Source: Fodinicola acaciae
GTDB taxonomy: Bacteria; Actinomycetota; Actinomycetes; Mycobacteriales; HKI-0501
DNA: 64,000 nt
Assembly (NCBI RefSeq): GCF_010993745.1
Contig: NZ_WOTN01000002.1
Location: 124,001 to 188,000 of the forward strand
Reading direction: 5' to 3'
Below are positions 32,622 to 41,107 of this stretch, piece after piece. Positions within the stretch are counted from its first letter, which is position 1. Every line of letters starts with the position of its first letter. Below the pieces are notes generated by a model that saw nothing but the letters and a program-made list of their open reading frames with translations, did not search any database and had not been told where the DNA came from. Made by a program: the position numbers and the translations under genes.

Positions 32622-33719
32622 CTAGGGAGAGGGCGGGGGCAGAGCCGCGGTCAATACCGCTGCGCGGCGCCGTGCATGACGGTGTCCGGCGGTCGCAGCG
32701 TACCGGTAGTACTTGAGAGCGATCGCTGGCTGTGTTTCTTCGATCCGTGCGGCGATACGAGCTGCTGCTCTGGTGTCGGCGGTAAACCGACCAGGCTGGT
32801 TTTCCCTTGCCAACGCCGTCAATAGTTGCCTGGAGAGTGCTTGTATTGTCGCGTTTTCTGCGAGTCGCTGGCTCACCTCCTCGGCAATGAGCTGATAGGC
32901 CCGACCTAACCGATGGACTGCGATCGCGAACAGTGCGAGGCTGAAGACGAGACCTAGCACAACGAGACCAATACGTTGCCAAGCCTCCGAAAACTCTCTT
33001 GCGGCGACAACGGTCAGGACGACGAGCGGCAGGCTGATAGCCGCCCGGACCGTCGCTTCTCCACGGAGGCGCTGGTAGGTGCGGAACGCGTCTGGAGTCT
33101 TGCAGAAGAGCAGTGGAAGCGTCATGGGGATCCCGGCTTGCACGACCGTTTCCACTATTGGTTCCAAGTTAATCAGACGAATGACGACTGTACGTCGCAT
33201 TCTTATCGGCACCTCCGGTCGCACCAATGCGTCCAGATTCGCGGCCGCCGAAGGCGGATCGGCAGCTCCAGGCTGCGGCGTCTGCGGCCCGGCTGTCGGC
33301 CGATGTGGTGCAGCGCTCGCCAATGCGCTGGCCAGGTACGTGCTAATCCGCGCCCTCAGAGTCCGGTGGCCAATGGATGAGAAAGACAGCAGCTCAAACG
33401 GCAACGTGCTGACAACTTGTCGGAGGCTGCGGGCGTGACCTGGCCGCGTGGCCATCCAAGACGCAAGAAGGACGGCAGAGGCGGAGGTAATGGCCTCAGA
33501 CATGATTCCGAGAAGGTAGGCACCCAGCAGGATAACGACGATAACGACCGGTTTCCCTGCCCAGTCACCCAGCCTGTACAAATCGGCGATCAAACCGCTG
33601 GCCGGTACGTAAGGCGGAAGGGCTCTGTGCCACAGTAACCACGCCGTAGTTAGCCAAATAGCCCCGGCCGGGAAGGGCGCTCGCGCACCTCGCAAGCCGG
33701 ACAGCAGTTGCTCCAACAT
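32622..33719 (-). CDS. Multi-pass membrane protein with C-terminal SEL1-like tail
   Basis: About 365 residues. Hydrophobic segments occur at about 18-30, 52-85 (PVVIVVILLGAYLLGIMSEA), 180-215 and 225-260 (SLPLVVLTVVAAREF, IGLVVLGLVFSLALFAIAV). A long polar region rich in Pro and Ala separates them. The C terminus (EETQPAIALKYYRYAATAGH) is like one SEL1/TPR-type helical repeat. The family is not recognised. ATG 33719 is preferred to TTG 33731. Confidence 0.6.
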   Translation of the reverse strand: MLEQLLSGLRGARAPFPAGAIWLTTAWLLWHRALPPYVPASGLIADLYRLGDWAGKPVVIVVILLGAYLLGIMSEAITSASAVLLASWMATRPGHARSLRQVVSTLPFELLSFSSIGHRTLRARISTYLASALASAAPHRPTAGPQTPQPGAADPPSAAANLDALVRPEVPIRMRRTVVIRLINLEPIVETVVQAGIPMTLPLLFCKTPDAFRTYQRLRGEATVRAAISLPLVVLTVVAAREFSEAWQRIGLVVLGLVFSLALFAIAVHRLGRAYQLIAEEVSQRLAENATIQALSRQLLTALARENQPGRFTADTRAAARIAARIEETQPAIALKYYRYAATAGHRHARRRAAVLTAALPPPSP

Positions 33720-34495
33720 GTGGAAATTCAACCAGGTTTGCGGTCGTTAGCCGATGTCCTGGACACATAACGGTGTCGTATCAGAGTCCAAGAGATCTAT
33801 AGTTCGATCCAATTTATCACTTTTGTTGACATCCGTCACCTATTTCGCCGACCTGCCACATCGACGCTGCTCATGGCAAGGTGCGACTGGCGAGCTGCAT
33901 CGCGTGCGATGTGCAATCCAGTCCACGGACGCGGAGACTGGCTCCTACCACATGTGGGACGGGCGCGAGCGACGGAAATTCCCGGTGTCCGGCGCCCGAT
34001 CGCCCGTCTGTGCAGCACCGGGATTGCAGCCGCTATCAGGATAACCGTCCGCTGAGTGTCGTCAAGTGATTTGGTTCTCGCCCTTTTCCGGAAATGAAGA
34101 GCAAGACATGCTCGTCTCCGGAAAACAGAAGCTACACCTCGTCACGCGCGCCGCGGGACGCTGCATCCGCGTTGGGGCGGCGGCGCCCTGGGACTTGTGA
34201 GTCAGAACGTGTTGGTGCGGCGGCGCGAAACGTCGTGCCCACCCGCGTCCGAAGCCCGCCTGCGCAAGATCTGCCGCGCTTTCTGCCGCAGGATCACCCG
34301 CCAGCCACCTCACCGCACCGGCATCGCCGGTGTTTCCCCACCTCAACTGAGTTTTCTGCCGCCGGCCGGTACGGCCAGGTTGGTGCAAGCCGGCGGTCAG
34401 CCGTTCTCGCGATCGTGATGGCGGAGCGAGTGTTCAACAGGGTCCGCGATCGCGCCGCTCCAGCGCGGAGCGGGTCGCGTCTCGTGAGGGGAGAC
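33720..34495. other. Long intergenic region before the cell-wall enzyme pair
   Basis: About 776 bases with lower GC in the first 350. No gene with recognisable features or a credible start is present on either strand. The frame of the lysozyme-like gene is open upstream to 34094, but that part lacks any family match and precedes the signal peptide. A promoter must lie here but I cannot place it securely. Confidence 0.5.
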
Positions 34496-35833
34496 ATGAA
34501 AGGTTTCGAGTGGTGCAGGAGTACGGGCACACTGTTGGCGACCGCGGCGGTGGCGATCGGATTCGCCAGTCCGGTGGCCGCCGCCGGCTACCAGGATCAG
34601 CTGCCGCCGTCGCCAGGCGCGTCGTGCCAGCCGCAGTCGACGCTGGGCGGTACGCACCTGACGGCGAGCCAGGTCGCGCGGTATGCGCTGAGCGCCGGAT
34701 TCGACAAATCGCACGCGGTGACCGCGGTCGCGGTCGCGCTGGCCGAGAGCGGCGGATGGACCAGGGCGGTGCTGCTGAACACCGACTGCACCCGCGACCG
34801 CGGGCTCTGGCAGATCAACAGCTACTGGCATCCGGAAGTCACCGACGCGATGGCGTTCGACCCGGCGAAAAACGCCGCCGCGGCATACCGGATATCCGGC
34901 CAAGGGTCGGCCTGGACGCAGTGGTCGACCTACAACAACGGAGCCTACAAGGCACATCTCGATGAGGCGCAGGCCGCAGTCTACGGCCAGACGACCAGGA
35001 AATTCGACCCGAAGGCGGTCCCGTCCGGGACGTTGTTGCGTGAACCGTCCGGTGCGATCGCGGTGTCGGTGGGTGGCGCTCCGGCGGTGTTCGCCAGCAA
35101 TGCCGAAATCAAGGCACTGGGATACGGCGGCGACACCGTCTACCCGGTTTCTCGCGGGTTCTTCGGAAAAATGCCGGGTACGCCGCGCGAAACGACACTG
35201 ATCCGGAACAGCGCGTACGCGACGGCGCTGGTCGTGGACGGGTGGAAGGTTCCGTTCGTCAGCAACGCCGAGATCGCCGCCTCCGGATACAAAGGCCGCC
35301 CGGTGATCGCCACGCCGGCGCGTTTCTTCAATGCGATTCACACCGGTCTTGCCAACGGCGCGCTGATCCGTAACTCGCGCAGTGTGGCGGCGGTTGTGGT
35401 CGGTACGGGCAAGGTCGTTTTCAACAGCAATGCCGAAATCGACGCGTCGGGTTACCGAGGCCGCCCGGTCGTACGGGTGCCGGACCGGGTTTTCGACTCA
35501 CATCGCTCGACGATCCCGGACGGTTCGCTGGTCAGCAATTCCCAGCACGCGGTCGCATTGGTGGTCGGCGGTGCGCGGGTGGTGTTCCTCAACAACGCGG
35601 AAATCGCGCACACCGGCTACAAGGGTCGCCCGATCGTACGCGTCCCTGACCGTGCCTTTGCCGGCCTCGCCCGGCCGATGCGCAACGGGACTCTGGTCAG
35701 GACACCGCCCAGCTCGCACGTCTGGGAAATCGTGAACGGCCACAAGGTGCTCGTCACCCGGCACAGCGGCCCCGTCTCCACCATCCCCACCCGCGTCCTC
35801 AACGGCATTCCTACCGAACAAGGAAAATCATGA
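34496..35833 (+). CDS. Secreted lysozyme/transglycosylase-like protein with 55-residue repeats
   Basis: The 445-residue protein has a signal peptide (residues 1-30, cleavage after PVAAA). A lysozyme-like domain follows (about 55-165): ALAESGG with likely catalytic Glu84, DRGLWQINSYWHPE and STYNNGAY. Four tandem repeats of exactly 55 residues start at 178, 233, 288 and 343, with a shortened fifth unit from 398. Each repeat has the core VV-G-VVF-SNAEI-ASGY-GRPV and then VPDRxF. The enzyme should cleave peptidoglycan glycan; the repeats probably bind wall or surface polymer. ATG 34496 has GAGGGGAG ahead. The stop overlaps the next gene (ATGA). Confidence 0.85.
   Translation: MKGFEWCRSTGTLLATAAVAIGFASPVAAAGYQDQLPPSPGASCQPQSTLGGTHLTASQVARYALSAGFDKSHAVTAVAVALAESGGWTRAVLLNTDCTRDRGLWQINSYWHPEVTDAMAFDPAKNAAAAYRISGQGSAWTQWSTYNNGAYKAHLDEAQAAVYGQTTRKFDPKAVPSGTLLREPSGAIAVSVGGAPAVFASNAEIKALGYGGDTVYPVSRGFFGKMPGTPRETTLIRNSAYATALVVDGWKVPFVSNAEIAASGYKGRPVIATPARFFNAIHTGLANGALIRNSRSVAAVVVGTGKVVFNSNAEIDASGYRGRPVVRVPDRVFDSHRSTIPDGSLVSNSQHAVALVVGGARVVFLNNAEIAHTGYKGRPIVRVPDRAFAGLARPMRNGTLVRTPPSSHVWEIVNGHKVLVTRHSGPVSTIPTRVLNGIPTEQGKS
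35027..35833 (+). repeat. 165-bp tandem coding repeats, array 1
   Basis: Four complete 165-bp units and a partial fifth encode the 55-residue modules. The first unit and its preceding linker (FDPKAVPSGTLLREPSG) are almost identical to the start of the array in the next gene, whereas units within one gene differ more. This indicates duplication of the whole array between genes after the repeats had diverged. Confidence 0.85.
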
Positions 35834-37344
35834 AGATCCAGAGTGGACTGATCGCGATAAGCGCGATGGCCGGGATCGGTTTGGCCGTTCCTGCCCAGGC
35901 CTTCAGCGCGCCGGCCATCGTACGACCGGCCAGCGCGGTCAATGGCAAGATCACCCGGTCCGAGGTGCTGACCCGCTCCAAGTCGTGGATCGACGAAAAG
36001 GTCCCGTACAGTCAGGACAACAACAGCCCGCACGTGAACAAGTACGGCTCCTACCGCCGCGACTGCTCCGGATTCGTCTCGATGTCCTGGCACCTGAGCT
36101 ATTCACGGACGACCGCCGACCTGCCCGACGTGATGCATCCGATCGCGCGCAAGGATCTCAAACCCGGCGACGCGCTTCTGCTTCCGCACACTCACATCGC
36201 ATTGTTCGTCGGCTGGGCCGACGGCGCGCACACCCAGCCGGTCGTACGTGAGGAATACGACTATGGTCACGTCGCCGAGCAACGGGTCTGGGCAGCCGCC
36301 AAGGCGGGCAACTACACGCCCGAGCGGTACGACAACATCGTCGACGATGCCGTCCGCACGTTTGATCCGAAGGCCGTTCCGTCCGGGACGCTGTTGCGGG
36401 AGCCCTCGGGTGCGATCGCGGTGTCGGTGGGCGGCGCTCCAGCCGTGTTCGCCAACAATGCGGAAATCACGGCGCTGGGATACGCCGGCAGTCCGATCTA
36501 CCCGGTGGCTCGCGGATTTTTCGCGAAAATGCCGAGTACGCCGCGCGAAACGACGTTGATGCGCAACAGCAGATACGCGACCGCGCTGGTCGTTGACGGT
36601 TGGAAAGTCCCGTTCGCCAGCAACGCCGAGATTGCCGCGTCCGGCTACAAAGGCCAACCGGTGATCGCCACTCCAGCCCGTTTCTTCGACACCGTTCACA
36701 CCGGTCTGCCGGACCGTGCGCTGATCCGCAATTCGGGTAATGTGGCGGCGGTCGTGGTCGGTACGGGCAAGGTCGTTTTCAACAGCAACGCCGAAATCGA
36801 CGCGTCCGGCTATCGGAGGCACCCCGTGGTACGCGTACCGGACCGGATTTTCGACTCTCACCCCACGAGCATCCCGAGTGGGTCGCTGGTCGGCAATTCC
36901 CACCATGCCGCGGCCGTGGTCATCGGGGCCGGCAAGTACGTCTTCGCCAGCAACGCCGACCTGGCCAGCGCCGGTTATCGGGGCCATACCGTGGTAGAAA
37001 TCCCGGACCGCTCGTTCACCAATCTCAGCACCGGAGTGCCGGACGGTTCGCTGGTACGCAATTCGGCGGGTGCCGTCGCGGTGGTGGTCGGTGGGGCTCG
37101 GGTGGTGTTCGAAAATCACGCCGAAATCGTGCACACGGGTTATTCGGCCAAGCCCATCATCCGTATTCCGGATCACGCTTTCGCCGCCCTGGCCCGGCCG
37201 ATGCGGGACGGCACGCTGGTGAAATCACCGGCGAACTCGACGATCTGGGAAATCGTACACGGCCACCGGGTCGCGGAAGCCGGAAAGCACGGGACGGTCT
37301 ACACCATCCCCACTCGCGTCCTCGACGGAATCCCACGCAAGTAA
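35830..37344 (+). CDS. Secreted NlpC/P60-like hydrolase with 55-residue repeats
   Basis: The 504-residue protein has a signal peptide (1-24, AQA cleavage). An NlpC/P60-type domain follows (about 40-175): YRRDCSGFVSMSWHLS with catalytic Cys79 and LLPHTHIALFVGW with His122; the KPGDAL motif precedes it. Five 55-residue repeats start at 186, 241, 296, 351 and 406, with a short sixth from 461. It should cut peptide stems or amide bonds in the wall. Its start overlaps the lysozyme-like gene by four bases, so glycan- and peptide-cleaving enzymes with the same targeting region are made together. Confidence 0.85.
   Translation: MKIQSGLIAISAMAGIGLAVPAQAFSAPAIVRPASAVNGKITRSEVLTRSKSWIDEKVPYSQDNNSPHVNKYGSYRRDCSGFVSMSWHLSYSRTTADLPDVMHPIARKDLKPGDALLLPHTHIALFVGWADGAHTQPVVREEYDYGHVAEQRVWAAAKAGNYTPERYDNIVDDAVRTFDPKAVPSGTLLREPSGAIAVSVGGAPAVFANNAEITALGYAGSPIYPVARGFFAKMPSTPRETTLMRNSRYATALVVDGWKVPFASNAEIAASGYKGQPVIATPARFFDTVHTGLPDRALIRNSGNVAAVVVGTGKVVFNSNAEIDASGYRRHPVVRVPDRIFDSHPTSIPSGSLVGNSHHAAAVVIGAGKYVFASNADLASAGYRGHTVVEIPDRSFTNLSTGVPDGSLVRNSAGAVAVVVGGARVVFENHAEIVHTGYSAKPIIRIPDHAFAALARPMRDGTLVKSPANSTIWEIVHGHRVAEAGKHGTVYTIPTRVLDGIPRK
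36385..37344 (+). repeat. 165-bp tandem coding repeats, array 2
   Basis: Five full units and one partial unit. Units 1-3 correspond one to one with units 1-3 of the upstream gene. Unit 4 (SNADLASAGYRGHTVVEIPD) has no close counterpart there, and unit 5 matches upstream unit 4. So the arrays differ by gain or loss of one internal unit. Confidence 0.85.
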
Positions 37345-37917: not shown

Positions 37918-38059
37918 TGGCAGGCCTCTCCCCAGGAATGCGTGCATACGGTACGGCATGCTGTCAACATGACGACCGACCACGCGACGCATGACACTCG
38001 CCGGACGGTCGAGTTCGCCACCAACACCGTCGTACGCCCGCACGAAACGGGGTGAGCCG

Positions 38060-41000
38060 GTGGCAGACGTGCCGTTCGCGACCTGGCTGCGGACCACCCG
38101 GCAGGCGGCCGGGCTGAGCCAGGCGCAGCTCGCCGACCGTTGCGGGCTGAGCGTCCGCGCGATCCGCGATCTTGAGCGCGGCCGGGTCCGTACGCCCCAG
38201 CAGGCGACCGAGAAGCGGTTGGTCGAGGCGCTGGAGGGCGAGCTGTCGATCACCATCGCCGGGCCGCTGGAGGTGCGCAAAGGCGACACGCCGATCGCCG
38301 TCACCTCGCCCCGCCGGCGCGCTCTGCTCGGCTATCTCTGCCTGTACGCCAACCAGACGGTGCCGGTGGACAAGCTGCTGGAGACGGTCTGGCCGGATCG
38401 CGACGTCCCGGCCGTCGAGCCGCTCCACCAGGAGATCTCCCGGCTGCGGCGGTTGCTGCGGGGCCAGCGGAGCGTCCGCATCGACCACACTCCAGGTGGA
38501 TATCGGCTGGTCGCCGAGCCGGAAGCGATCGACCTGCCGCGGTTGCGAGCGCGGCTGCGGGAAGCCGGTGCGCTGGCCGAGCAGCGGCACCTCACCAGGG
38601 CGTACGCGATCTGGGACGCCGTGTTCTGTCGCCCGCCCGGTCAGCTGCTCGCCGATCTGCCGCAGTTCGCCTCTGACCCGGCCGTCCAGGCGGTCGCAGC
38701 GGAGCTGGCGCGCGCGGCGATCGCGTTCGGCTCGACCGCGACCACGCTCGGGCGGGCCGACCGGGCCGTCGACCCGCTGCTCGCGGCGCTGCGTACGGAT
38801 CCGTTGGACGAAAGTGTCTGCGCGGCGGCGATGCGGACGCTTGCCGCCGCTGGACGGCCGGCAGCCGCGTTGGACCTCTACCGGCAGACCCGCCGCGGCC
38901 TGTCCGCCGAACTGGGCATCGAACCCAGCGCCGACCTGCAGCGGACCTACGAGGAGCTGCTGGCGGCGACCGGCGCGGAGCCGGCTCCGGGCACCGGTGC
39001 GCCGGCGCAGTTGCCGGCCGACGTGCCCGACTTCGTCGGCCGGGCCAGCGAAGTCGACCGGATCCGACAGCATCTCGCCGCGGCCGGCGGTGCGGCCCCG
39101 GCGCTCGCGGTCGTCACGGCGGCCGGCGGTTTCGGGAAGACGGCGCTGGCCGTACACGTGGCGCACCGGATCCGCGACCGCTATCCCGACGGGCAGCTGT
39201 TCATCCAGCTGCGCGGCGCGAGCGGCCAGCCGGTCGAGCCGGCCGACGCACTCGCCTCGCTGCTCTACTCGCTGGGTGCTCGCGACATCCCCACTGGCCT
39301 GGACGACCGCGTACGCCTCTTCCGCACGCTTCTCGACGGTCGTCAGATGCTGCTGGTCCTCGATGACGCCGGCGACACCGCGCAGGTGCGCCCGCTGGTC
39401 CCCGGCTCGCCGAGCTGCGCCGTTTTGGTCACCAGCCGGCGAAACCTGGCTGGCCTGCCGGGTGCCGAGTCGATCGGGCTGCGTCCGCTGGAGCCCACCG
39501 AGGCGGTCGACCTGCTCGCCCGCATCACCGGTGTCGGCCGGGTCGCCGTCGAGCCGGACGCGGCCACCTCGCTCGCGGCGGCTTGCGGCGGCCTGCCGCT
39601 GGCCGTACGGATAGCCGGTGGCCGCCTCGCCGCCCGGCCGAGCTGGCCGCTGGCCACCTTCGCCGGCCGGCTCGCCGACTCCAGCCGGCGGCTGGACGAG
39701 CTGCGCCTCGGTGACCTCGCCGTACGCGCGTCGCTGCAGCTCGGCTACGAAGCTCTGCCGGCGGACCAGGCGATGGCCTTCCGGGCCTTCGGGTCATGGC
39801 CGGACAACGACATTCCGCTCGAGTTCGCCGCCGCGCTGCTGGCGATGCCGGTCTCGCCGGCCGAGGATCTGCTCGAGGCGCTCGTCGATGTCCATCTGCT
39901 CGACTGCCCCGAGCCGGGCCGCTACCGGATCCACGATCTCCTGCACACGTACGCCGCCGAACGGCGCGCCGAAGACGACTCCGCCAGCGTGCGGGAAGAA
40001 GCCGTCGTGCGGGTGATGGCGTTCAGCAGCAGTACGGTCGAGCACGCCCTCGCGGTCATCTATCCGAACCGGACCCCGGAACGGCCGGAGGACCACCGCG
40101 ACAGCCCGCACCAGCTGAGGTTCGACGCCTACGCCGACGCTCGTGGCTGGCTGGATCGCAGCTTCGACACCCTCGTCCTGCTGGTTCGCCATCAGGCGGC
40201 CGAGCGTGGGCCGGGAGCCGACACCGCCGGGTTTCTGGCTCTGTTGCTCACCCGCTATTGCCAGCTGCGCGGCGACTGGCGCGCGTACGAGCAGATCGCC
40301 CGCCTCGGCCTGGCGCTGGCGACCTACACCGGCGACGAGCGCCTCGCCGCCCGCATCCGCATCGGGCTCGCCGGGTGCCTGGACAACCAGTACCGCAGCA
40401 CGGAGGCCGCACCTCTGCACCACAGCGCGCTCGCGTACTTTCGCGGCAGCGGCGATCGGCTGAGCGAGGCTCGCGTGCTGATCAACCTCGGCAGCTCGTA
40501 CGGGCGCCAGCAGCGCTACACCGAGGCGGAGGCGCACTTTTCCGCCTGCCTGCGGCTGGCGACCGAGCTGGGCGACCGGCAGCTGCGGATCCGCGTACTG
40601 ATCAACTTCGCCGAGACGCTGAACCACACCGGTGACTATCCGGCCGCCCGCCGGCACGCCGAGCTGGCTGTGGATCTCTGCGAGGAGTCCGACGAGCACG
40701 TCGGCCGGGCCAACGCCATGAGCACGCTGGGCGAGACGCTCACGCGACTGGGTGACCACACCGCGGCTGCCCGTACGCTAGCGCAGGCGCTGGAGCTCGC
40801 CAGGCAAACCGGCGACCGTGGTTGCGAAGCCGAGACCAGCACCCGGATGGCCGCGCTGTCCCGACAGCTCGGCGACTACCGCACGGCGATCGGGCACGCC
40901 CAATGGTCACTGGGCATCTACGACCAGAACGAAGACCTCTTCGGGCGGGCCGAAACGCTCAACGAACTCGGCCGGATTTTCCAGCAGGACGGCCAAACCG

Positions 41001-41107
41001 ACAACGCCGTACGGAACTGGCGGGCCGCCGCGGCGATTTTCGCCGACCTCGGCGCACCAGAGGCCGCCGCCGTCGCCGGACTCCTGGAGCCGCTGACCGC
41101 CCGATAG
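38060..41107 (+). CDS. AfsR/SARP-type regulator with N-terminal XRE HTH, BTAD, NB-ARC and TPR domains
   Basis: The 1015-residue product starts with an XRE helix-turn-helix (residues 5-60: LRTTRQAAGLSQAQLADRCG, LSVRAIRDLERGRV). It continues with a winged helix and BTAD domain (about 65-300: RRRALLGYLCLYANQTVPVD, DPLDESVCAAAMRTLAAAGR, LSAELGIEPSADLQRTYEEL). The NB-ARC ATPase has P-loop AAGGFGKTALAVHV (about 355) and MLLVLDDAGD. TPR repeats follow to the end (ARVLINLGSSYGRQQRYTEA, GRIFQQDGQTDNAV). Such STAND proteins switch on secondary-metabolite or differentiation genes. The usual SARP lacks the leading XRE domain. GTG 38060 is preceded by a GGGGTGAG site. Confidence 0.88.
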   Translation: MADVPFATWLRTTRQAAGLSQAQLADRCGLSVRAIRDLERGRVRTPQQATEKRLVEALEGELSITIAGPLEVRKGDTPIAVTSPRRRALLGYLCLYANQTVPVDKLLETVWPDRDVPAVEPLHQEISRLRRLLRGQRSVRIDHTPGGYRLVAEPEAIDLPRLRARLREAGALAEQRHLTRAYAIWDAVFCRPPGQLLADLPQFASDPAVQAVAAELARAAIAFGSTATTLGRADRAVDPLLAALRTDPLDESVCAAAMRTLAAAGRPAAALDLYRQTRRGLSAELGIEPSADLQRTYEELLAATGAEPAPGTGAPAQLPADVPDFVGRASEVDRIRQHLAAAGGAAPALAVVTAAGGFGKTALAVHVAHRIRDRYPDGQLFIQLRGASGQPVEPADALASLLYSLGARDIPTGLDDRVRLFRTLLDGRQMLLVLDDAGDTAQVRPLVPGSPSCAVLVTSRRNLAGLPGAESIGLRPLEPTEAVDLLARITGVGRVAVEPDAATSLAAACGGLPLAVRIAGGRLAARPSWPLATFAGRLADSSRRLDELRLGDLAVRASLQLGYEALPADQAMAFRAFGSWPDNDIPLEFAAALLAMPVSPAEDLLEALVDVHLLDCPEPGRYRIHDLLHTYAAERRAEDDSASVREEAVVRVMAFSSSTVEHALAVIYPNRTPERPEDHRDSPHQLRFDAYADARGWLDRSFDTLVLLVRHQAAERGPGADTAGFLALLLTRYCQLRGDWRAYEQIARLGLALATYTGDERLAARIRIGLAGCLDNQYRSTEAAPLHHSALAYFRGSGDRLSEARVLINLGSSYGRQQRYTEAEAHFSACLRLATELGDRQLRIRVLINFAETLNHTGDYPAARRHAELAVDLCEESDEHVGRANAMSTLGETLTRLGDHTAAARTLAQALELARQTGDRGCEAETSTRMAALSRQLGDYRTAIGHAQWSLGIYDQNEDLFGRAETLNELGRIFQQDGQTDNAVRNWRAAAAIFADLGAPEAAAVAGLLEPLTAR

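What the first reader, a model, noticed from the sequence alone, without database searches (positions are those of the whole stretch)
34496..37344. Coupled lysozyme-like and NlpC/P60-like enzymes sharing exact 55-residue repeat arrays
Seen: two secreted enzymes in one ATGA-coupled pair, one with a glycan-cleaving and one with a peptide-cleaving fold. Both carry C-terminal arrays of 55-residue modules (4.9 and 5.8 units) with the core SNAEI-ASGY-GRPV and VPDRxF. Units 1-3 correspond between genes, and one internal unit was gained or lost. Inference: a two-enzyme wall-lysis set sharing a targeting domain that may bind a surface polymer, comparable to choline-binding repeats but with an unfamiliar motif. 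I know of no named family for this repeat. This is the best candidate for an undescribed system here.
Basis: partly seen in the sequence, partly recalled or inferred. Interest (0 to 1): 0.75.

Follow-up and report, generated by a model that had tools for sequence, protein, structure and literature searches.

The report
Paired wall-cutting enzymes with matched anchors
Two adjacent genes encode one enzyme likely to cut the sugar strands and one likely to cut the peptide links of the bacterial cell wall, both carrying the same chain of repeated modules; the module is related to a part of a bacterial secretion machine, and similar matched pairs, most with other modules, occur in related bacteria.

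Summary
Two ATGA-overlapping genes encode a lysozyme-like protein (Pfam SLT_3, E 3e-29) and a divergent NlpC/P60-like protein, both ending in arrays with exact 55-residue spacing (4 and 5 full units plus a short cap). The repeat matches no Pfam or NCBIfam model but is not without relatives: a two-unit AlphaFold model (pLDDT 90) superposes on repeat R4 of the type VII secretion protein EccB (1.5 Å over 50 residues), profile-profile comparison gives 95% (E 4e-8), and a genome search with the repeat profile finds EccB proteins unprompted. The next structural match is an endolysin wall-binding domain. Pairing recurs: of 55 SLT_3 frames examined, 5 carry a long tandem array and, by my reading, all 5 have a peptidase with a matching array within about 4 kb (three array types; NlpC-like, CHAP or M23). 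Nine others have the peptidase fused. A separate EccB-array pair joins CHAP to an Rpf-type transglycosylase. Best reading: a two-enzyme wall-lysis cassette in which a shared, exchangeable array sends a glycan cutter and a peptide cutter to the same wall site. Wall binding, activity and synergy are inferred.

The parts
34496..35833 (+). gene A: lysozyme-like (SLT_3) enzyme with C-terminal array, 445 aa, signal peptide by eye
34679..34930 (+). SLT_3 catalytic domain (residues 62-145); Glu84 at 34745-34747 aligns with a Glu of an animal lysozyme
   Evidence: that this Glu is the catalytic one is recalled
35027..35191 (+). gene A repeat unit 1 (55 aa)
35192..35356 (+). gene A repeat unit 2 (55 aa)
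35357..35521 (+). gene A repeat unit 3 (55 aa)
35522..35686 (+). gene A repeat unit 4 (55 aa), counterpart of gene B unit 5
35687..35830 (+). gene A terminal short unit (48 aa)
35830..35833 (+). ATGA stop/start overlap of the two genes
35830..37344 (+). gene B: NlpC/P60-like enzyme with C-terminal array, 504 aa, signal peptide by eye
35929..36348 (+). NlpC/P60-like domain; Cys79 at 36064-36066 and His122 at 36193-36195 invariant in the 10 aligned rows
36385..36549 (+). gene B repeat unit 1 (55 aa)
36550..36714 (+). gene B repeat unit 2 (55 aa)
36715..36879 (+). gene B repeat unit 3 (55 aa); with unit 4 the modelled pair
36880..37044 (+). gene B repeat unit 4 (55 aa), without counterpart in gene A
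37045..37209 (+). gene B repeat unit 5 (55 aa)
37210..37341 (+). gene B terminal short unit (44 aa)

Best explanation
The two genes form a translationally coupled wall-lysis cassette. Both proteins are secreted. The SLT_3 domain cuts the glycan strands of peptidoglycan and the NlpC/P60-like domain cuts the stem peptides or cross-links. The shared tandem array of EccB-R-like modules (four-stranded sheet, two helices) holds both enzymes at the same cell-wall site, so the two cuts fall close together and the mesh opens faster than with either enzyme alone. The array is the exchangeable part: related pairs carry FG-GAP or other propeller-type arrays in both genes while keeping the glycan-plus-peptide partnership. 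Shown: gene layout, domain families, active-site residues, the array match, its relation to EccB, and the recurrence. Inferred: secretion (signal peptides by eye), enzyme activity, wall binding by the array, and synergy.
For: Coupling and domains. Unit fold: AlphaFold model of two units, pLDDT 89.8, pTM 0.79. One unit superposes on EccB1 R4 at 1.5 Å over 50 residues, Z 6.3; rows 1-9 of 14 are EccB, row 10 is the LysIME-EF1 wall-binding domain (Z 4.2, 3.0 Å over 52), rows 11-14 are at Z 2.2 or below. Sequence: repeat profile on EccB R4 17.4 bits at best, against at most 2.8 in 20 shuffles of the same 18 proteins; hhalign with 12 EccB R4 segments 95%, E 4e-8, against at most 0.9% for 30 column shuffles and 0.3% for the reversed profile; a search of 364 genomes found this genome's own EccB and three other EccB proteins without being told. 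Recurrence: 5 SLT_3 proteins with long tandem arrays, each with a peptidase bearing a matching array; 9 others with the peptidase fused; an EccB-array CHAP plus Rpf-type pair in G405; an FG-GAP CHAP plus Rpf-type pair in Streptomyces sp. ADI95-16. Constraint: dN/dS about 0.19 between the window's arrays. Precedent for synergy of a transglycosylase and an endopeptidase: RpfB and RipA (PMC2262848, abstract).
Against: No ligand or activity data exist. Z 6.3 is middling by the tool's own note, and Foldseek with the two-unit model reached only E 0.017. The repeat profile scored R4 above the best shuffle in 8 of 18 EccB proteins, not in the other 10 (two of those 18 reads are visibly broken frames). 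EccB wall binding is itself only a suggestion in the literature (PMC4769845). NlpC-like and other repeat-bearing proteins often stand alone: no matched neighbour in 12 of 12 such loci examined. The class 'long tandem array' in the SLT_3 count was drawn by me after seeing the data: the self-comparison flagged internal repeats in 15 of 55, of which 5 have the matched partner, 8 have the peptidase fused, and 2 (L059, L063) have neither. Three of the five SLT_3 pairs come from one genus. In L103 the peptidase lies about 4 kb away on the other strand. The third catalytic residue of the NlpC-like domain is not clear.
Confidence: 0.62

Rival explanations
1. The arrays serve to join the two enzymes to each other (hetero-oligomer), as EccB repeat domains pack on each other, and wall binding is secondary or absent.
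For: In EccB1 the repeats R1/R4 and R2/R3 pack through their N-terminal helices (PMC4769845, passages). Matching arrays in both partners fit self-recognition. LysIME-EF1's domain forms a tetramer (PMC7098653, passages).
Against: The same module sits on trypsin-like and NlpC-like proteins without a matched partner nearby. Other pairs use other array types.
Confidence: 0.2
2. Ordinary duplication: one wall enzyme gene was duplicated beside itself and its catalytic domain replaced, and the shared array is a relic of that event without functional coupling.
For: Adjacent array-sharing genes can arise by tandem duplication. In the L025 pair, 120 consecutive codons are identical in DNA, a sign of recent copying or conversion.
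Against: The window's arrays have diverged a lot at silent sites (dS 0.70) but little in protein (dN 0.13), so selection keeps each of them intact. The same glycan-plus-peptidase combination recurs with different arrays and enzyme families, and fused forms exist.
Confidence: 0.13
3. The pair is a secreted weapon against other bacteria, not a tool for remodelling the producer's own wall. This concerns the purpose and can hold together with co-targeting.
For: Exchangeable arrays resemble endolysin wall-binding domains that set target range. In the library of viral protein models the two-unit model matches an uncharacterised Rhodococcus phage protein (E 1.5e-4), a Microbacterium phage M23 protein (E 1.8e-3) and, weakly (E 0.39 or worse), phage lysins.
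Against: No immunity-like gene was identified beside the pair, though only five neighbours were scanned; the same catalytic classes also remodel the own wall.
Confidence: 0.35

Closest known systems
EccB repeat domains R1-R4 of type VII secretion systems
   Same: Unit fold with four-stranded sheet and two helices, about 50-57 residues, shared sequence pattern around GY and a following proline-rich strand; significant profile match
   Different: In EccB four repeats flank a core domain in a membrane protein; here 5-6 units run in tandem on enzymes
LysIME-EF1 and PlyC endolysin wall-binding domains
   Same: Same general fold joined to wall-cutting enzymes; [quoted passage not shown]
   Different: There the domain is single and forms a ring of separate copies; here it is a covalent tandem array. 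PlyCB itself was not among the rows
Pneumococcal choline-binding enzymes (recalled)
   Same: Several wall enzymes share one repeat type that sends them to a wall polymer
   Different: Repeats are about 20 residues with another fold (recalled); here the ligand is unknown and the enzymes sit in one operon
RipA-RpfB pair of mycobacteria
   Same: A peptidoglycan endopeptidase and a lytic transglycosylase acting in synergy (PMC2262848, abstract)
   Different: They act through a direct interaction; a shared array is not mentioned in that abstract
SLT_3-NlpC/P60-TSP3 fusion proteins
   Same: Same two catalytic classes together
   Different: Both domains in one chain, most with TSP3 repeats

Membership tests
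SLT_3 lysozyme-like (PF18896) | score over the Pfam cut-off | tested here: met
   101.7 bits against 27
SLT_3 lysozyme-like (PF18896) | catalytic Glu | tested here: met
   Glu84 aligns with a Glu of lysozyme 3cb7 (E 0.006); its catalytic role there is recalled
SLT_3 lysozyme-like (PF18896) | glycan-cleaving activity | not testable with these tools
   needs assay
NlpC/P60 | score over the Pfam cut-off | tested here: not met
   14.4 bits against 23; filed as NlpC/P60-like only
NlpC/P60 | Cys in DCSG and His, aligned to solved members | tested here: met
   invariant in 10 rows; profile matches Spr E 4.6e-4 and MepS E 6.8e-4
NlpC/P60 | third polar catalytic residue | tested here: inconclusive
   no invariant candidate after the His except the C-terminal Arg-Tyr
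EccB repeat domain | sequence profile match to EccB repeats | tested here: met
   hhalign 95%, E 4.1e-8 (window units alone 80%, E 1.5e-5); 17.4 bits at best against at most 2.8 in shuffles, R4 above shuffles in 8 of 18 EccB
EccB repeat domain | fold | tested here: met
   1.5 Å over 50 residues, Z 6.3, from a predicted model
EccB repeat domain | part of a membrane-anchored EccB protein (PF05108) | tested here: not met
   no PF05108 match in either protein; the module, not the protein, is shared
PlyCB-type wall-binding domain | fold match to PlyCB | tested here: inconclusive
   PlyCB not in the rows; LysIME-EF1 domain Z 4.2; EccB-PlyCB link from PMC4769845
clostridial/choline-type cell-wall-binding repeats | sequence profile match | tested here: inconclusive
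   E 3.5e-5 with the narrow profile, 0.02 with the broad one, over about 20 residues
any named Pfam/NCBIfam repeat | match of the repeat to a library model over its cut-off | tested here: not met

The most novel reading that the evidence does not exclude
Actinobacteria use a general two-gene design: a glycan cutter and a peptide cutter carry the same exchangeable array, and arrays are replaced in both genes together. One such array type is made of EccB repeat domains, which would make those domains wall-binding modules that the type VII secretion system uses as its anchor in the cell wall.
Probability: 0.4. Interest if true: 0.75.

Novelty: new variant of a known kind. Interest (0 to 1): 0.58.

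Why it matters
It gives an unnamed repeat a fold and a family, links wall enzymes to a core part of the type VII secretion machine whose role in the wall is open (PMC4769845, PMC6986878), and offers small soluble arrays with which wall binding by EccB-type domains can be tested directly. The matched-array rule also predicts which hydrolases act together.

Tried and rejected
Beta-propeller reading of the 55-residue unit: suggested by the propeller-type arrays of paralogs, rejected because the model is a four-stranded sheet with two helices and an FG-GAP control profile does not match.

Choline-type or clostridial repeat homology: the narrow-profile hit faded with the broad profile. Not filed as a member.

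Phage origin: no match of gene B's array in 50,697 phage records, and no relative of P0001 confirmed in viral contigs (short peptide patterns, close relatives only). Riboswitch: no Rfam family in the window at gathering score and none at E 1 in 33700-34520. Plasmid relatives of gene B's array: none in 72,556 records. A search of viral contigs with the broad unit alignment could not be run. The full-length model was poor over the catalytic domain (pLDDT under 50 for residues 1-176), so the NlpC fold rests on sequence alone. The first run of the internal-repeat script found no self-repeat at all (a fault of the method) and was replaced.

Literature: searches (PubMed Central open library, no preprints; the listed papers were mostly seen as listings) showed no paper on EccB-like repeats on wall enzymes or on matched-array pairs; absence in print is claimed for these searches only. 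Read beyond the listing: PMC4769845 and PMC7098653 (passages), PMC6986878 (one passage), PMC2262848 (abstract and section list).

Counts and dropped rows: all 38 SLT_3 rows and 17 of the 60 further rows were examined; 43 rows, with open frames of 315 residues or less, were not fetched. One weak neighbour match (L085, 27% over 131 residues, E 7e-6) was not counted because the neighbour does not look like a peptidase (by eye). In the genome searches only part of the first-look candidates were scored (up to 16, 5 and 18 per genome). EccB R4 segments in A8 are 12 picked from 18. M23 domains in L044, L046 and L053, and the NlpC-like domains of L154 and L157, were read by eye; L154 and L157 gave no Pfam match.
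Full report
The finding is real. Gene A (34496-35833) and gene B (35830-37344) overlap by ATGA; an AAGGAA lies just before the start of gene B (by eye). Gene A carries an SLT_3 lysozyme-like domain well over Pfam's cut-off with Glu84 aligned to a Glu of an animal lysozyme. Gene B falls below Pfam's cut-off for NLPC_P60. A ten-row profile of its domain has an invariant Cys (DCSG) and His and matches solved NlpC/P60 enzymes; no third catalytic residue is clear. Both N-termini look like signal peptides by eye.

The arrays have exact 55-residue spacing: 4 full units and a 48-residue cap in A, 5 and a 44-residue cap in B. Units 1-3 correspond at 82-84% identity, A4 corresponds to B5 at 73%, and B4 has no counterpart. 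Between the arrays dN is 0.13 and dS 0.70, so the likeness is kept by selection, not by recent copying. No further copy was found in this genome with gene A's array at E 1e-3, and in 396 genomes of the phylum the narrow unit profile matched only this genome (up to 16 candidates scored per genome).

What the unit is. No Pfam or NCBIfam model matches the repeat over its cut-off. A search with the whole array in 397 genomes of the order (5 candidates scored per genome) found clear relatives: on trypsin-like proteases (L092 and L094 by Pfam; L095 by eye), on an NlpC-like enzyme (L093, aligned), and more weakly on M23-like proteins read by eye. AlphaFold of two units from five window rows gave pLDDT 89.8 and pTM 0.79, with the order beta-beta-beta-alpha-beta-alpha in the first unit. 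VIA-align placed one unit on EccB1 R4 at 1.5 Å over 50 residues (Z 6.3); rows 1-9 of 14 were EccB proteins, row 10 the wall-binding domain of endolysin LysIME-EF1, and rows 11-14 were at Z 2.2 or below. The full-length model gave the same leading families with lower quality. Foldseek with the two-unit model ranked EccB first but only at E 0.017.

By sequence, the profile of 20 units scores up to 17.4 bits on EccB R4 against at most 2.8 in 20 shuffles; 8 of 18 EccB proteins score above the shuffles at R4, the others do not. Hhalign against 12 EccB R4 segments gives 95% and E 4e-8 (window units alone 80% and E 1.5e-5), with controls at or below 0.9%. In 364 genomes of the class the profile matched 14 genomes at E 1e-3; hits include this genome's own EccB (E 9e-4; EccB located) and three further proteins that Pfam calls EccB. 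No EccB sequence was in the profile.

What EccB tells. In EccB1 each of the four repeat domains has a four-stranded sheet and two helices, R1 resembles PlyCB, and peptidoglycan binding is suggested without data (PMC4769845, passages). The ESX-3 paper repeats the PlyCB comparison (PMC6986878, one passage). In LysIME-EF1 the domain is a four-stranded sheet with a helix on each side, and R190 is needed for binding to host cells (PMC7098653, passages). So the fold points to wall binding, but the ligand is open.

The pairing recurs. All 38 SLT_3 rows of the order search (397 genomes) and 17 of 60 further rows of the class search (345 genomes) were examined with their neighbourhoods. Of these 55, fifteen have at least 240 residues after the SLT_3 domain. 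Five of the fifteen have a peptidase with a matching array nearby: the window (NlpC-like); L025 in the same genome (CHAP, FG-GAP arrays, 95% identical); L026 in the sister genome (NlpC-like, arrays that Pfam calls RCC1_2 or, weakly, DUF346, 85% over 178 residues, partner gene frame-interrupted); L058 in G650 (M23, FG-GAP arrays, 86%); and L103 in G405 (NlpC-like on the other strand about 4 kb away, arrays 69% identical, matched by Pfam's FG-GAP_3 though different in look; a GH43 protein with a more distant array follows the SLT_3 gene). Pfam confirms the CHAP, M23, SLT_3, FG-GAP and GH43 domains; the NlpC-like domains of L026 and L103 are rows of the alignment. Nine of the fifteen have the peptidase in the same chain (eight NlpC/P60, one M23). 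One (L111) has neither.

How the count depends on definition. A self-comparison flagged internal repeats in 15 of the 55 C-termini: the five pairs, eight of the fused proteins (TSP3 or other repeats), and L059 and L063, which have a short or low-complexity repeat and no matched neighbour. The class 'long tandem array' was thus drawn after seeing the data. Three of the five pairs come from one genus. Matched neighbours are not automatic: none was seen for 12 other loci with NlpC-like or repeat-bearing proteins, of which at least two have no array.

Two further pairs combine an Rpf-type transglycosylase with CHAP. In G405 both genes carry EccB-like arrays (78% amino-acid identity over 291 aligned codons). 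In Streptomyces sp. ADI95-16 both carry FG-GAP arrays (56%), and a third FG-GAP gene follows. These two were met while following other hits, not in a census. So the same array type serves different enzyme families, and the same enzyme logic uses different arrays. In L025, 120 consecutive codons of the two arrays are identical in DNA, consistent with conversion that keeps arrays matched.

Mechanism. The best-supported reading is co-targeting: the array brings a glycan cutter and a peptide cutter to one wall site. A transglycosylase and an endopeptidase are known to act in synergy in mycobacteria (RpfB and RipA, PMC2262848, abstract). Rivals are array-array association of the two enzymes, a neutral relic of duplication, and use against other bacteria; the last concerns the purpose and can hold together with co-targeting.

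Context. The nearest downstream ORFs are a minus-strand one without Pfam match and a BTAD/NB-ARC/TPR regulator. No riboswitch was found in the window. Promoter-like sites (1 found, 0.7 expected) and terminator-like sites (5 found, 2.8 expected) do not stand out.

Verdict. The enzymes are known kinds. The tandem EccB-like array on wall enzymes, and the rule that an array is shared within glycan-peptide pairs and differs between pairs, were not found described in the searches made. I file it as a new variant of a known kind.

Noticed in passing
L025 5178-8298 (G000:C2 about 1228.2-1231.3 kb): Second pair in the same genome, CHAP plus SLT_3 with FG-GAP arrays; 120 consecutive codons identical in DNA between the arrays, beside blocks of 78-97% identity, a sign of gene conversion.
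   Followed up: partly
L174 6368-9404 (G405:C2): CHAP and Rpf-type transglycosylase genes side by side, both with EccB-like arrays.
   Followed up: yes
L103 8779-10830 (G405:C14): A GH43 protein with a related array directly follows the SLT_3 gene, so the cassette may hold a third wall or polysaccharide enzyme.
   Followed up: partly
L026 6325-9388 (G001:C47): The NlpC-like partner gene appears frame-interrupted in this draft genome; could be assembly error or decay.
   Followed up: no
L095 7521-9050 (G643:C89): Trypsin-like protein (by eye) whose repeat units 2 and 3 are identical in protein sequence, a sign of recent unit duplication.
   Followed up: no
window 37991-41107: BTAD/NB-ARC/TPR regulator of SARP type begins about 650 bases downstream of the pair; any control of the pair is untested.
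   Followed up: partly
L026 9351-9479 and L025 2446-2533: FMN and glycine riboswitches lie near two of the pairs, on the opposite strand and so probably belonging to other genes.
   Followed up: no
L147, L148, L150, L151: Long proteins with many EccB-like units, in L147, L150 and L151 behind an N-terminal region that was not identified.
   Followed up: no
L120 8217-10238 (Streptomyces sp. ADI95-16 plasmid): Third FG-GAP gene after the Rpf-type and CHAP genes, with no enzyme domain found by Pfam and an array 65% identical to that of the Rpf-type gene.
   Followed up: no
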